Program-made: the position numbers and the translations under genes
The notes under the pieces: model-generated
Told to the model about the DNA's origin: nothing
Databases searched by the model: none
Seen by the model: only the letters and a program-made list of their open reading frames with translations
Assembly: GCF_012910705.2 (NCBI RefSeq)
Contig: NZ_WTVG02000036.1
Coordinates: forward strand, 1 to 64,000
Direction of reading: 5' to 3'
Source: Aromatoleum anaerobium
GTDB taxonomy: Bacteria > Pseudomonadota > Gammaproteobacteria > Burkholderiales > Rhodocyclaceae
DNA length: 64,000 bases
Part shown: positions 5,102 through 34,772 of the stretch, one piece after another
How positions within the stretch are numbered: position 1 is the first letter of the stretch
How the letters are laid out: each line of letters opens with the position of its first letter

Positions 5102-5121
5102 ATTGTTTGACGTCTAACAAT
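5102..5121. promoter_or_regulatory. MarR-type operator, copy 1
   Basis: ATTGTTTGACGTCTAACAAT is a 20-base palindrome with one mismatched pair, between the ferredoxin gene and the marR gene. Nineteen of its 20 bases match the perfect palindrome at 34739-34758 in front of the aldehyde oxidoreductase. Binding by the adjacent MarR protein is inferred from position and palindrome size. Confidence 0.7.
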
Positions 5122-5203
5122 ATAACCGCAGTTCAACGCGACGCCGATCTACGGTAGCATTCGAGCCTGGAACCCAAGTAGCGTCTGTGACGCCAAGCCC
5201 GGA

Positions 5204-5671
5204 ATGGACATGACAAGAAAGAAGACATCCGCAGACAAAGGCCTCGATTTCGGCATTCTGCCCAGCCTGGCCGGCTATCAGCTGCGACTTGCGCAGATCG
5301 CGATCTTTCGCGATTTCGCCGCTGCGCTTGGCGAGTTCGACGTCACGCCCGGACTGTTCGGCGTCATCGTCATCATCGACGCGAACCCCGGCCTGAAGCA
5401 GAGCGAGCTTGCCCGCGCAGCGCACCTCGACCGCTCGACGGTGGTTTCGGTGATCGACAATCTCGAACGCCGCGGCCTCGTCGAACGACGGCCGGCCGAC
5501 AACGACCGTCGCTCGAACGCGCTGGTGCTCACCCCGGACGGAGTCGCACTGCTGAAAAAGCTCAAGCGACGCGTCGGCGAACACGAGAAACGGCTGGTCG
5601 AGCACCTGTCCGAAGAGGAGCGCGCCACGCTGGTGACGCTGCTGCAGAAGATCTTCCCGGAACAGCGTTAA
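5204..5671 (+). CDS. MarR-family transcriptional regulator
   Basis: A 155-residue MarR-type winged-helix repressor. The recognition region is QSELARAAHLDRSTVVSVID with the wing around RRPADNDRRSNALVLT, both textbook for the family. MarR proteins bind 16-20 base palindromes and usually release DNA on binding an aromatic ligand. It is divergent from the ferredoxin gene, with a palindrome at 5102 between them. The same palindrome lies on the promoter of the aldehyde oxidoreductase at 34.8 kb, so the likely regulon is marR, ferredoxin and that enzyme (inference). The start could be 5204 or the methionine two codons on. It is convergent with the aldehyde dehydrogenase gene. Confidence 0.9.
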   Translation: MDMTRKKTSADKGLDFGILPSLAGYQLRLAQIAIFRDFAAALGEFDVTPGLFGVIVIIDANPGLKQSELARAAHLDRSTVVSVIDNLERRGLVERRPADNDRRSNALVLTPDGVALLKKLKRRVGEHEKRLVEHLSEEERATLVTLLQKIFPEQR

Positions 5672-5750
5672 CCCCACGCGCCGCCCCACGGGCGCAACGA
5701 ATTCAGCCCCCGCACTGCCCATCGGGGCGCAGCGCGGGGACCGGGCCGCA

Positions 5751-7193
5751 TCAGAACGGGAACTGCCGCTGCCCCAGTTGCACGGTGATCCACTTGAGCT
5801 CGGTCATCTCGTCCATCGAGTGATGCCCGCCCTCGCGGCCGAAGCCGCTGTCCTTGACGCCGCCGAACGGCACGTGCGGTTCGTCCATGATCGAAGAGTC
5901 GTTGATGTGCACCATCCCCGCCTCGAGCCGCAGCGACAGGTCGAACGCTTTTTGCAGGTCATTCGTGATCAGGCCCGACGAGAGCCCGTAGCACGAGTCG
6001 TTCGCGAGCGCGAGCGCCGCCTCGCTGTCCGCGGCGCGGATCACCGACACCACCGGGCCGAAGCTCTCTTCGCTGAACACCAGCATGTCTGGCGTCACGC
6101 CGGCGAGGATCGTCGGCTGGTAGAAAGCACCGTCGCTTTTTCCTCCGGTGAGCAGCTTCGCACCTTTCGCGACCGCGTCGACGACGTGAGCGTCGAGCAC
6201 GCGGCACTGCTTGCGGTCGATCAGCGGGCCGATCACGGTCTGCGGGTCGTGCGGGTCGCCGACCTGAAAGCCCTTGATCTTGGTGGTCAGCTTGTCGCAG
6301 AACGTGTCGAAGATCGGCGCCTCGACGATCAGGCGCGAGTTCGCCATGCACACCTGGCCCTGGTGCAGGAAGATGCCGAACGCGGCGGCATTGACCGCGT
6401 AATCGACGTCGGCGTCCTTGAGCACGATCAGCGGACTCTTGCCGCCGAGTTCCAGCGTGATGCGCTTGAAGTGCTTGCCGGCCTCGGTCGACAGCTCCCG
6501 CCCCACTTCAGTCGAGCCGGTAAAGGTGATCATGCGGATGCGCGGGTCGGCGACGAAAGTGTTGCCGAGCACTGAACCTTGCACCGGCACGACGTTCAGC
6601 ACGCCTTTCGGCAGGCCGGCGGCCGCGAAGATTTCGGCGATCTTGAGCCCCGTGACCGGCGTGTAGGTTGCAGGCTTCAGGATGAAAGTGTTGCCGGCGG
6701 CGAGCGCGAGCGCGACTTTCTTCGTCGCGAGGAGAAACGGGAAGTTGAACGGCGCGATGCCGGCGATCACCCCCAGCGGCCGGCGCACGCTCATCGAGAA
6801 CACGCCGGGACTGTCGGACGGCATCGTCTCGCCGGTGATGCGTCGGCATTCTCCCGCGGCGCTGCGCAGCAGGTTCACGACGAACGAGGCCTCGAACATC
6901 GCCTTGCCGAAGGTCGAACCCGCTTCGTCGATCAGCACCTCGGCGACTTCCGGGATGCGCTTTTCGAGCACGTCGGCAGCACGCAGCAGAATCGCCTCGC
7001 GCTCGTTCGCGAGCGTGCCGCCCCAGCTTTCACGCGCGCGGTACGCCGCGGCGATCGCGCGCTCCAGATCCTCTGCGGAAGCCTGGTGCACGCGCCCGAA
7101 CACTTCTCCCGTCGCCGGATTGAGGTCGTCGAGGATCGTGCCCGACGACGACTCCGCCCATTCGCCATCAATGAAGAGCTTGTATTCCTTCAT
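5751..7193 (-). CDS. Aldehyde dehydrogenase, probable 4-hydroxybenzaldehyde dehydrogenase
   Basis: A 480-residue NAD(P)-dependent aldehyde dehydrogenase. Visible motifs are LELGGKSP with the general-base glutamate, GQVCMAN with the catalytic cysteine, the cofactor region FTGSTEVGR, and a C-terminal PFGGVKDSGFGREGG. The ATG at 7193 follows AGGAGG at good spacing, 11 bases after the pchF stop, making it the last gene of the pch operon. In p-cresol pathways this enzyme converts the 4-hydroxybenzaldehyde released by PchCF to 4-hydroxybenzoate; substrate is inferred from the operon. A second aldehyde dehydrogenase of related class sits at 20.2 kb beside the duplicated pchC. Confidence 0.9.
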   Translation of the reverse strand: MKEYKLFIDGEWAESSSGTILDDLNPATGEVFGRVHQASAEDLERAIAAAYRARESWGGTLANEREAILLRAADVLEKRIPEVAEVLIDEAGSTFGKAMFEASFVVNLLRSAAGECRRITGETMPSDSPGVFSMSVRRPLGVIAGIAPFNFPFLLATKKVALALAAGNTFILKPATYTPVTGLKIAEIFAAAGLPKGVLNVVPVQGSVLGNTFVADPRIRMITFTGSTEVGRELSTEAGKHFKRITLELGGKSPLIVLKDADVDYAVNAAAFGIFLHQGQVCMANSRLIVEAPIFDTFCDKLTTKIKGFQVGDPHDPQTVIGPLIDRKQCRVLDAHVVDAVAKGAKLLTGGKSDGAFYQPTILAGVTPDMLVFSEESFGPVVSVIRAADSEAALALANDSCYGLSSGLITNDLQKAFDLSLRLEAGMVHINDSSIMDEPHVPFGGVKDSGFGREGGHHSMDEMTELKWITVQLGQRQFPF

Positions 7194-7204
7194 GAGTGAC
7201 CTCC

Positions 7205-33285: not shown

Positions 33286-33522
33286 ACAATCTACGATATT
33301 CACAAACGTCTCTTGCAAGTGACCTCGGAAGGGCGTCGCCCCCGACCCGCGGATGGGTCTGCAGCGGCAGGCGCCGGGAGTCGTCCGACCCCTGCCGGAT
33401 AAATTCGTTGATCTTTTGCCAGGTTTCACCAAGGAGAGCAGCACCATTCCATAACAAAGTTCAACTTGCCGACCCGCGTCGGACGAGTTGCAACGGGCTT
33501 CGAATCCAAAAAGGGGAAATCA

Positions 33523-34572
33523 ATGCACAAAAAACGTCTCGCCATAGCGGTCTCTTGTATCGTCGCCGGTCTGGCTTCGGCTTCGGCCGCAGCCCAGTCG
33601 AATGTGACGGTATATGGCGTGGCCGATGCTTTCATCGGCCACGGTAAGACCGGAGACGCCAAATTTACCGGCGTGCAGAGTGGCGGCTGGGCGGGTTCGC
33701 GCCTCGGCTTCCGCGGCACCGAAGACCTCGGCAATGGGCTCAAGGCCGTCTTCACGCTGGAGTACGGAATCGAGATGGACGCAAACGACGGTCTCGGTGC
33801 GGCGCCCAACCGTTCCCGCCAGCAGTTCATCGGCCTGCAGGGCAATTTCGGCTTCATCGGCCTCGGTCGCCAGTACCACCCGGGCTACTACGTATTCAAG
33901 TACGACGCCATCGTTCCCGTGCCGATCAGCCCGCAATTTGCCCTGGCGGCTTCCGCCGGATCAAACCTGGTGGCGGGCGGTGCCGCGCGCGTCAGCAACT
34001 CGATCAACTACAAGTCGCCGAACTTCGGCGGCCTGACGCTCAACGCGATCTATGGCCTCAATGAAGTCAACCAGACCAGCGACCGTCAGAAAGGCGACAT
34101 CGCGGCCATCGGCGCCGAATACGCGAACGGCCCGCTCGCCGTCGGCCTGATCTACAGCCAGGTGAAGGAACCCGTCGGCGACGAGGACAAGCGCGAAGCG
34201 TACCTCGGCGGCTCCTACGACTTCGGCATGTTCAAGCTGGCAGGCTCGTACCAGCGCATCGAGGACGCCACTGCGGCGGAAGACACCGACAACGTCTGGC
34301 ATATCGGCGGCACCGTCCCGATTGGCACCTCGGGCAAATTCTCCGTGGGTTATGGCCAACTGGACGCGGATGCGAAGGACAGCGACGCCGACTCGTGGGC
34401 CGTGGTGTATTCCCACTCGCTGTCGAAGCGCACGCTCGCCTATGCCGGTTACGGCCACATCAGCAACGACGACGGACGGGCGGTGCGCTCCCCGTCGTTT
34501 GTCAGTGCGGCCAATACTTCGCCCGGCGACACGAGCCGCAACCTGATGGTCGGTTTGAACCACCTGTTCTGA
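33523..34572 (+). CDS. Gram-negative porin, betaproteobacterial type
   Basis: A 349-residue trimeric porin precursor: signal peptide MHKKRLAIAVSCIVAG (cleavage near AAA-QSN), first strand NVTVYGVADAF, conserved SRLGFRGTEDLGNGLKAVF, and the C-terminal phenylalanine (LMVGLNHLF). The ATG at 33523 follows AAGGGG; an earlier in-frame start lacks a signal. It forms a channel for small anionic solutes in the outer membrane. Being divergent from a TRAP transporter operon suggests it may admit the same acids. A terminator follows at once. Confidence 0.92.
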   Translation: MHKKRLAIAVSCIVAGLASASAAAQSNVTVYGVADAFIGHGKTGDAKFTGVQSGGWAGSRLGFRGTEDLGNGLKAVFTLEYGIEMDANDGLGAAPNRSRQQFIGLQGNFGFIGLGRQYHPGYYVFKYDAIVPVPISPQFALAASAGSNLVAGGAARVSNSINYKSPNFGGLTLNAIYGLNEVNQTSDRQKGDIAAIGAEYANGPLAVGLIYSQVKEPVGDEDKREAYLGGSYDFGMFKLAGSYQRIEDATAAEDTDNVWHIGGTVPIGTSGKFSVGYGQLDADAKDSDADSWAVVYSHSLSKRTLAYAGYGHISNDDGRAVRSPSFVSAANTSPGDTSRNLMVGLNHLF

Positions 34573-34592
34573 TCATCTCCCGACTGGAATAG

Positions 34593-34615
34593 ACGGGCGC
34601 TGCGGCGCCCGTTTT
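34593..34615 (+). terminator. Intrinsic terminator of the porin gene
   Basis: An 8-base perfect stem (ACGGGCGC / GCGCCCGT) with loop TGCG followed by TTTTC, 20 bases after the porin stop. Confidence 0.85.
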
Positions 34616-34738
34616 CATTTACACCCCCGTTTCGGTGCCCATACGGGCCGGGCGATCGGGAGGATGAAACAACGAGGAGATTCGTCGCCGAAATATCGAA
34701 AATCGATCGTCGTCCACCGACATTCATTGCTCGCCACC

Positions 34739-34772
34739 ATTGTTTGACGTCAAACAATTTGCTCTCTATACT
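34739..34772 (+). promoter_or_regulatory. Sigma-70 promoter overlapped by a MarR-type operator (copy 2)
   Basis: ATTGTTTGACGTCAAACAAT (34739-34758) is a perfect 20-base palindrome. The -35 box TTGACG (34744-34749) lies inside it, and TATACT (34767-34772) follows after exactly 17 bases, giving a start site about 28 bases before the aldehyde oxidoreductase ATG. The palindrome shares 19 of 20 bases with that at 5102-5121 beside marR, so a repressor bound here would block RNA polymerase. Confidence 0.82.

What the first reader, a model, noticed from the sequence alone, without database searches (positions are those of the whole stretch)
5102..34772. One 20-base palindrome links MarR, a low-potential ferredoxin and the aldehyde oxidoreductase 30 kb apart
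ATTGTTTGACGTCAAACAAT at 34739 overlaps the -35 box of a clean sigma-70 promoter; 19 of 20 bases recur at 5102 in the marR/ferredoxin intergenic region. This predicts a MarR regulon in which a ferredoxin and the enzyme that would reduce it are induced together by an aromatic ligand, possibly an aldehyde or its acid.
Basis: partly seen in the sequence, partly recalled or inferred. Interest (0 to 1): 0.75.

Follow-up and report, generated by a model that had tools for sequence, protein, structure and literature searches.

The report
MarR operator regulon for ferredoxin supply
A short mirror-image DNA sequence appears to let one repressor protein switch on, together, genes that charge and genes that drain a strongly reducing ferredoxin when anaerobic bacteria degrade phenolic compounds; the link is computed and not yet tested in the laboratory.

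Summary
In detail: ATTGTTTGACGTCAAACAAT lies at 34739-34758 over the -35 box of a good sigma-70 promoter, and a 19/20 copy lies at 5102-5121 between the ferredoxin and marR genes. The 4.56-Mb genome holds one further copy within 3 mismatches, upstream of hcrCAB (4-hydroxybenzoyl-CoA reductase), a ferredoxin consumer. In the genus the site precedes the oxidoreductase gene in 16 of 16 genomes that have it and hcrC in 15 of 15 orthologous copies. In other genera the MarR gene lies beside the oxidoreductase, hcrC or korAB-ferredoxin, and an operon korAB-ferredoxin-oxidoreductase exists. Among 199 family genomes MarR occurs in 34 of 36 with the oxidoreductase or HcrC, and in 3 of 163 without. Relatives add rnf and a second korAB. 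Binding, direction and ligand are untested. The nearest solved relative, CouR, senses an aryl-CoA, so an aromatic CoA ester is likelier than an aldehyde or acid. An FNR-like box at 33272 was separated out.

The parts
34739..34758 (.). perfect 20-bp palindrome ATTGTTTGACGTCAAACAAT, proposed MarR operator of the aldehyde oxidoreductase gene
   Evidence: equivalent site upstream of 16 of 16 genus orthologues
34744..34772 (+). sigma-70-type promoter TTGACG-17-TATACT whose -35 box lies inside the palindrome
34807..37131 (+). AFOR-family aldehyde:ferredoxin oxidoreductase with a fused C-terminal ThiS/MoaD-like domain ending in Gly-Gly
5102..5121 (.). 19/20 copy of the palindrome, proposed operator of marR and the divergent ferredoxin gene
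   Evidence: at -102 from marR with 16-17/18 arm matches in 5 of 16 genus genomes, weaker (12-13/18) in 11
5204..5671 (+). MarR-family regulator, 155 aa, no cysteine; closest solved structure R. palustris CouR
4758..4955 (-). 2[4Fe-4S] ferredoxin, 65 aa, related to the solved ferredoxins 3EUN/1BLU and 1RGV
5751..7193 (-). context: aldehyde dehydrogenase superfamily protein, probable 4-hydroxybenzaldehyde dehydrogenase of the p-cresol cluster
   Evidence: below the curated cut-offs of the 25 families shown; assignment inferred
7205..8719 (-). context: p-cresol methylhydroxylase flavoprotein
   Evidence: closest solved chains 1WVE and 1DII, E 9.5e-220
25085..28590 (-). context: sigma-54 response regulator and XylR_N/V4R sensor kinase, PcrSR-like, a separate control of the p-cresol genes
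   Evidence: PcrSR described in PMC10715001 (passages)

Best explanation
The palindrome is the operator of the MarR protein at 5204-5671. The MarR dimer binds it and represses (a) the promoter of the ferredoxin-linked aldehyde oxidoreductase, by covering its -35 box, (b) the divergent ferredoxin/marR region and (c) hcrCAB, where the site lies 11-13 bases downstream of a TGCTAGCAT motif that may be the -10 region. An aromatic catabolite, most likely an aryl-CoA thioester such as 4-hydroxybenzoyl-CoA or benzoyl-CoA, releases MarR. The cell then makes together the enzyme that charges ferredoxin by oxidising an aldehyde (in the p-cresol cluster plausibly 4-hydroxybenzaldehyde), the ferredoxin, and the reductase that spends it on 4-hydroxybenzoyl-CoA. 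Shown by computation: the sites, their conservation, the gene families and the MarR association. Inferred: binding, repression, ligand, aldehyde substrate, electron flow.
For: Site upstream of the oxidoreductase in 16 of 16 genus orthologues and of hcrC in 15 of 15 orthologous copies at 14/18 arm matches or better; mononucleotide-shuffled upstream windows reach 14/18 in 2 of 2500. HcrC, A and B pass the NCBIfam equivalog cut-offs. Family pattern search: 21 of 199 genomes hit, reversed control 1 of 199. Outside the genus MarR is upstream of the oxidoreductase in 25 of 79 named loci, with a site of 13/18 or better before the oxidoreductase in 19 of these 25; marR is divergent from hcrC in G116 and from korA-korB-ferredoxin in the four genus loci read in full (L132-L135). 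Ferredoxin directly precedes the oxidoreductase, behind kor genes, in 8 of 79 named loci (in L200 korA lies outside the fetched piece). MarR in 34 of 36 genomes with oxidoreductase or HcrC versus 3 of 163 without. G088 has the oxidoreductase, no MarR hit and no site before the gene (9/18). Sites of 15-16/18 precede rnf in 8 of the 8 closest rnf clusters with enough upstream sequence and a second korAB in G199. Nearest solved MarR is CouR (E 8.9e-25, next 4.9e-10); R. jostii CouR boxes overlap -35 boxes (PMC4737184, passages).
Against: No binding or expression data. The site at marR is weak in 11 of 16 genus genomes (12-13/18). No sigma-70 promoter was recognised at the 5102 site or at the hcrC site. 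14 of 24 family genomes with the oxidoreductase have no HcrC hit at E 1e-45, so 4-hydroxybenzoyl-CoA is unlikely to be the universal signal. 35 of 78 named oxidoreductase loci with upstream sequence lack a 13/18 site directly upstream: 8 lie inside the kor operon, 5 have MarR beside them and a 12/18 version, one is G078 (site before marR instead), one is G088, and 20 are unexplained, 2 of them betaproteobacterial by title. In the family set 5 of 25 oxidoreductase genes lack the site and 4 of these 5 are in genomes that have MarR. 6 of 19 further hcrC-like genes lack it, including G048 and G103 with good orthologues. 8 of 21 palindrome genomes have no MarR at E 1e-30. Aldehyde oxidation by this enzyme is not shown. 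Co-occurrence counts are not corrected for phylogeny.
Confidence: 0.78

Rival explanations
1. The palindrome is the site of a different regulator, for example an FNR/AcpR-type anaerobic activator, and MarR proximity is incidental.
For: FNR-type boxes share the TTGA...TCAA halves; 11 of 13 bzdN upstream matches and the window match at 33271 contain TTGAT-N4-ATCAA (consensus recalled). AcpR binding over a -35 box is described for bzd (PMC6678401, passages).
Against: None of the sites scored 13/18 or better at the oxidoreductase, hcrC, marR or rnf sets contains TTGAT-N4-ATCAA; the core spacing is TTGA-N2-TCAA. MarR tracks the target genes (34 of 36 versus 3 of 163) and lies next to them in several genera.
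Confidence: 0.1
2. The MarR regulon is real but MarR responds to the aldehyde or the free acid, an aldehyde-detoxification switch that also carries hcr along.
For: Many MarR proteins bind phenolic compounds (stated in PMC4737184); the oxidoreductase would remove an aldehyde; the genes flank a p-cresol cluster whose pathway passes through 4-hydroxybenzaldehyde.
Against: [quoted passage not shown] Targets in relatives (korAB, rnf, second korAB) are ferredoxin-linked enzymes that remove no aldehyde.
Confidence: 0.3
3. MarR is an activator, or a dual regulator, rather than a repressor at these promoters.
For: The 5102 and hcrC sites overlap no recognised promoter; some MarR proteins activate (PMC4737184).
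Against: At 34739 the site covers the -35 box, and at hcrC it lies just downstream of TGCTAGCAT in 12 of 15 copies, both more typical of repression.
Confidence: 0.12
4. Chance or inherited sequence similarity without function.
For: Genus orthologues share ancestry, so repeated sites there are not independent.
Against: 0 matches in shuffled windows; sites recur in other genera; no site before the oxidoreductase in the one family genome that has the gene without a MarR hit.
Confidence: 0.02

Closest known systems
CouR of Rhodopseudomonas palustris (PDB 6C28) and Rhodococcus jostii CouR
   Same: MarR-type regulator; the R. palustris protein is the closest solved sequence. R. jostii CouR boxes are inverted repeats over -35 boxes.
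   Different: CouR controls p-hydroxycinnamate catabolism. This MarR sits with ferredoxin-linked enzymes; its operator reads ATTGTTTGA-N2-TCAAACAAT and its ligand is unknown. The R. palustris operator sequence was not seen (searches failed).
Aromatoleum aromaticum tungsten aldehyde oxidoreductase AorABC (PDB 8C0Z; PMC6365974)
   Same: AFOR family; same or related host genus; aldehyde oxidation by the known enzyme.
   Different: The window enzyme scores higher with 9MQX and 1AOR (203.9 and 188.3 bits) than with 8C0Z (156.5) and carries a fused ThiS/MoaD-like domain. Its neighbours are a porin and a BON-domain gene, not aorA or aorC. AorD and AorE, the MoaD-like proteins of that operon, are separate genes.
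KorAB-ferredoxin electron supply of Thauera aromatica
   Same: Ferredoxin reduced by a low-potential oxidoreductase feeds aromatic CoA reduction (PMC9973337 passages; a reference title there names the ferredoxin as electron donor of 4-hydroxybenzoyl-CoA reductase).
   Different: Here an aldehyde oxidoreductase joins or replaces KorAB beside MarR, and one operator links reducers, carrier and consumer.
PcrSR p-cresol two-component system of A. aromaticum EbN1
   Same: A PcrSR-like pair and a p-cresol methylhydroxylase gene lie in this window (PMC10715001).
   Different: PcrSR is a sigma-54 system acting on cmh; the palindrome promoter is sigma-70-type and tied to MarR.
BzdR/AcpR control of bzd benzoyl-CoA reductase genes
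   Same: Anaerobic aromatic catabolism in the same genera.
   Different: Different operators (TGCA repeats and an AcpR/FNR-type region); 11 of 13 bzdN upstream matches in this study are FNR-like, not the MarR site.

Membership tests
MarR family | winged-helix MarR domain | tested here: met
   PF01047 E 7e-15, 55.1 bits against cut-off 24.6
MarR family | inverted-repeat operator near its own gene and its targets | tested here: met
   that MarR binds it is not shown
CouR-type aryl-CoA-responsive MarR | closest sequence relation to CouR | tested here: met
   6C28 E 8.9e-25, next hit 4.9e-10; similarity is moderate
CouR-type aryl-CoA-responsive MarR | release from DNA by an aryl-CoA thioester | not testable with these tools
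   needs a gel shift with ligands
Saro_0803 / BilQ / HpaR equivalogs | score above NCBIfam cut-off | tested here: not met
   105 of 200, 66.2 of 125 and 53.9 of 121.2 bits
AFOR aldehyde:ferredoxin oxidoreductase | AFOR_N and AFOR_C domains | tested here: met
   152.2 and 300.5 bits
AFOR aldehyde:ferredoxin oxidoreductase | four cysteines of the [4Fe-4S] site | tested here: met
   C304, C307 and C311 align with the CxxCxxxC of 1AOR, and C571 with the C of GLCLF; their role as cluster ligands is recalled
AFOR aldehyde:ferredoxin oxidoreductase | tungsten content and aldehyde oxidation with ferredoxin | not testable with these tools
   needs purified enzyme
W-dependent benzoyl-CoA reductase BamB | closest to BamB among solved structures | tested here: not met
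   BamB 4Z3W 87.9 bits versus 203.9 for AOR 9MQX
4-hydroxybenzoyl-CoA reductase HcrCAB (third site, contig C38) | three subunits above equivalog cut-offs | tested here: met
   293.2 (257.8), 1379.5 (994.55), 529.5 (404.55) bits
FNR/AcpR box | TTGAT-N4-ATCAA (recalled consensus) | tested here: not met
   absent from the three genome sites and from the scored oxidoreductase, hcrC, marR and rnf sites; present at window 33272-33285 and in 11 of 13 bzdN matches

The most novel reading that the evidence does not exclude
One MarR-type aryl-CoA sensor runs a regulon organised by ferredoxin budget rather than by pathway: the carrier, alternative chargers (MoaD-fused aldehyde oxidoreductase, KorAB, Rnf), the consumer 4-hydroxybenzoyl-CoA reductase and possibly its molybdenum-cofactor maturation genes. 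The aldehyde oxidoreductase would be a previously unassigned source of low-potential electrons for reductive dehydroxylation and ring reduction.
Probability: 0.5. Interest if true: 0.75.

Novelty: new variant of a known kind. Interest (0 to 1): 0.62.

Why it matters
How cells obtain and balance the very low-potential electrons needed for aromatic CoA reduction is only partly known; KorAB and the Nfn-like AadN are the sources named in the passages read (PMC9973337). A conserved operator that ties an aldehyde oxidoreductase, KorAB, Rnf and the ferredoxin to 4-hydroxybenzoyl-CoA reductase names further candidate sources and one regulator to delete, so the question becomes directly testable. It also gives a physiological setting for an AOR-type family with a built-in MoaD-like domain for which no characterised member was found here (PDB searches; paper searches).

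Tried and rejected
Rejected: the weaker match at 33271-33290 (15/18) between the TRAP transporter and porin genes as a MarR site; it contains TTGATGAATATCAA, an FNR-type box. Rejected for the same reason: 11 of the 13 matches of 13/18 or better upstream of bzdN. Left open: the own-genome site C35:116128 upstream of a MeaB-XdhC / XdhC / MobA-like operon (15/18 in 5 close species, 10-12/18 in the 8 other loci) spans only -33 to -14 from the start codon and is not kept beyond the close clade. Left open: C35:18789 between EamA-like and YebC-like genes (names by eye). The p-cresol operon of this window shows no site (best 10/18 between 9301 and 10019), although G167 has a 3-mismatch site in front of an operon that looks equivalent by eye. 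Thiol redox sensing by MarR was considered and dropped: 31 of 32 aligned MarR sequences, own included, have no cysteine.

Dropped rows and limits: L129, a 75% HcrC paralogue, was left out of the 15 hcrC orthologues (best match 10/18). For rnf, 30 of 38 matches were held as loci; two of the ten closest clusters lacked enough upstream sequence; the 20 other rnf loci held have no site of 13/18 except one. For bzdN 30 of 31 matches were held. L216 has no upstream sequence: one search counted it among 79, one search gives the mended n of 78 (43 with a site of 13/18 or better). One search kept the best 80 of 99 relatives. The named loci overlap the unnamed G-handle genomes. Random windows of fetched loci include true sites, so the shuffled windows are the control used. 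Gene calls in fetched loci come from my own codon-usage script, not an annotation. MarR hits go down to 43% identity. One search was an empty script.

Papers: PMC10715001, PMC13328260, PMC9765128, PMC6365974, PMC9594313, PMC4737184, PMC6678401 and PMC9973337 were seen as passages only; others only as listings with the start of the abstract. No print record of this regulon was found in searches of the open-access library; subscription papers are mostly not held, so this is a weak negative.
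Full report
What is there. The two palindromes are where the finding says. At 34739-34758 the perfect copy covers the -35 box of TTGACG-17-TATACT and spans -68 to -49 from the ATG of a 774-aa AFOR-family oxidoreductase. At 5102-5121 the 19/20 copy lies between a 65-aa 2[4Fe-4S] ferredoxin on the minus strand and a 155-aa MarR on the plus strand. The ferredoxin matches the solved ferredoxins 3EUN (E 4.6e-23) and 1RGV (E 8e-21); that these come from Allochromatium vinosum and Thauera aromatica is recalled. G100, whose main contig is 4,296,230 bases, is probably A. aromaticum EbN1 (recalled).

Whole-genome test. The own genome has three places within 3 mismatches and none for the reversed control. 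The third, on another contig, spans -78 to -59 from the start of hcrC; the three gene products there pass the NCBIfam equivalog cut-offs for 4-hydroxybenzoyl-CoA reductase. A looser pattern over 17 genus genomes gives 99 forward matches against 6 for the reversed control (summed by hand; this count includes FNR-like boxes). In the own genome that pattern adds three weaker places: window 33271, C35:18789 and C35:116128.

Conservation in the genus. Oxidoreductase orthologues occur in 16 of 17 genomes, MarR in the same 16, HcrC in 14 of 17. The one genome without oxidoreductase and MarR, G206 (99% complete), also has no BzdN-type benzoyl-CoA reductase hit (16 of 17 have one). A site with at least 14 of 18 arm matches starts at -63 to -68 before all 16 oxidoreductase genes and at -56 to -78 before all 15 hcrC orthologues. 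Before marR it is strong (16-17/18) in 5 and weak (12-13/18) in 11. Mononucleotide-shuffled upstream windows reach 14/18 in 2 of 2500.

Other genera. Of 79 named oxidoreductase loci, 31 have a MarR homologue in the fetched flanks: 25 upstream of the oxidoreductase, 19 of these with a site of 13/18 or better before it, and 6 downstream. Eight of 79 show kor genes, then ferredoxin, then oxidoreductase in a row, and none of the eight has a site directly before the oxidoreductase. Three such operons were read further upstream: G151 (L218) has a 14/18 site about 125 bases before korA; G001 (L219) has none there but a 14/18 site before marR; G181 (L220) has none of 14/18. In two other arrangements the oxidoreductase diverges from a kor-ferredoxin set with a 14-16/18 site between (G153, G073). 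In the four genus loci read in full, marR diverges from korA-korB-ferredoxin; in the window the kor genes are absent from between the two. In G116 marR is divergent from hcrC. The family-wide pattern search hits 21 of 199 genomes against 1 for the control. Of the 25 oxidoreductase genes in those 199 genomes, 20 have a site of 13/18 or better within 400 bases upstream; the five without are in G088, G078, G151, G001 and the second copy of G181. MarR at E 1e-30 is in 23 of 24 genomes with the oxidoreductase, in 21 of 22 with HcrC, in 34 of 36 with either, and in 3 of 163 with neither. Of 19 further hcrC-like genes in the family 13 have a site of 13/18 or better; the six without are G048, G103 and four genes of 50-58% identity. 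These counts share ancestry and are not independent events.

More targets in relatives. Ten rnf clusters are closest to the query (93-100%); the eight with enough upstream sequence all carry a 15-16/18 site, at -666 to -677 from rnfA in three and at -538 to -540 in five, and one further copy (66%) also has one. The rnf copy of the own genome is a different one (59%) without a site. In G199 a second korAB is preceded by ACTGTTTGACGTCAAACTAT. Rnf and Kor are ferredoxin-linked enzymes (established knowledge), which is why I read the regulon as a ferredoxin budget. Most matches upstream of bzdN (11 of 13) and the one at window 33271 are FNR-type boxes by the recalled consensus and were taken out.

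Function. The window is a p-cresol cluster: a p-cresol methylhydroxylase flavoprotein (E 9.5e-220 to 1WVE), an aldehyde dehydrogenase, a sigma-54 response regulator with a XylR_N/V4R sensor kinase, an AMP-binding ligase and a TRAP transporter, resembling the cmh/hbd/hcl2/PcrSR set described for EbN1 (PMC10715001 passages). That pathway makes 4-hydroxybenzaldehyde and then 4-hydroxybenzoyl-CoA. An oxidoreductase that passes aldehyde electrons to ferredoxin, and a reductase that takes them from ferredoxin, would be coupled within one pathway. The aldehyde substrate and the electron transfer are inference; a dehydrogenase for the same aldehyde is probably also encoded.

How it is switched. At 34739 a bound dimer would block RNA polymerase. 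At hcrC the site follows TGCTAGCAT by 11-13 bases in 12 of 15 copies, which would fit a block at the start of transcription, but the consensus scan recognised no promoter there. At 5102 the geometry is unclear. The MarR has no cysteine, so a thiol redox switch is unlikely. Its closest solved relative by far is R. [quoted passage not shown] I therefore put an aryl-CoA first (about 0.55) and an aldehyde or acid second (about 0.3). Because 14 of 24 genomes with the oxidoreductase lack an HcrC hit, benzoyl-CoA or a broad aryl-CoA range may fit better than 4-hydroxybenzoyl-CoA alone.

Enzyme. The oxidoreductase is nearer to the solved AORs 9MQX and 1AOR than to A. aromaticum AorB (8C0Z) or BamB. 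Its C-terminal 65 residues match ThiS (36.1 bits, cut-off 22.5) and end in Gly-Gly. In one search, 75 of 79 relatives match to residue 769-774 of the query and the other four run into the end of the fetched piece, so the fusion is a family trait. A 2026 classification mentions a separate ThiS-like protein, WorX, near some class I enzymes; the passages seen mention no fusion (PMC13328260).

Verdict. The regulon interpretation is supported and should be widened to hcrCAB and, in relatives, korAB and rnf. Binding, repression and ligand are open.

Noticed in passing
window 36934-37131: C-terminal ThiS/MoaD-like domain ending in Gly-Gly fused to the AFOR-type oxidoreductase, shared by 75 of 79 named relatives, the other four being cut by the end of the fetched piece; possibly a built-in sulfur carrier for its own pterin cofactor.
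   Followed up: partly
window 33272-33285: TTGATGAATATCAA, an FNR-type box between the TRAP transporter and porin genes, with the same match near the oxidoreductase gene in four close relatives; probably anaerobic control.
   Followed up: partly
L132, L133, L134 and L135, gap between the fdhD-like and PaaX-like genes: In a second clade an FNR-like match lies between fdhD and the PaaX-like regulator gene (perfect by the recalled consensus in L133, one mismatch in the other three); the window has nothing above 11/18 there.
   Followed up: no
window 25085-28590: PcrSR-like sigma-54 response regulator and XylR_N/V4R/PAS sensor kinase, so the p-cresol genes and the oxidoreductase seem to be under different regulators.
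   Followed up: partly
own genome C35:116128 (L131:4001-4020): 15/18 site at -33 to -14 before a MeaB-XdhC fusion gene, followed by XdhC-type and MobA/cytidylyltransferase-like genes; could be cofactor maturation for HcrCAB.
   Followed up: partly
own genome C35:18789 (L130:4001-4020): TTTGTTTGAGTTCAAACATT between an EamA-like and a YebC-like gene (named by eye), with near-identical matches in close relatives; no link to the regulon recognised.
   Followed up: no
G167 C30:6861 (L036:4001-4020): A 3-mismatch site precedes what looks by eye like a cytochrome c, p-cresol-oxidase and aldehyde dehydrogenase operon in this species, unlike in the window.
   Followed up: no
own genome C37:73394-74530: A second benzoyl-CoA-reductase-like (BzdN-type) gene lies about 9 kb beyond the window end; the 18 kb after the window hold no site of 13/18 or better.
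   Followed up: partly
L285 (G203 C3, 5.4 kb): A small contig with inverted, broken pieces of hcr genes and a site near each end; possibly an assembly product or decaying copy.
   Followed up: no
G048 and G103 (L260, L261): hcrC without the palindrome but with a different MarR-like gene (42% identical) starting about 436 bases upstream on the same strand; possibly a regulator swap.
   Followed up: no
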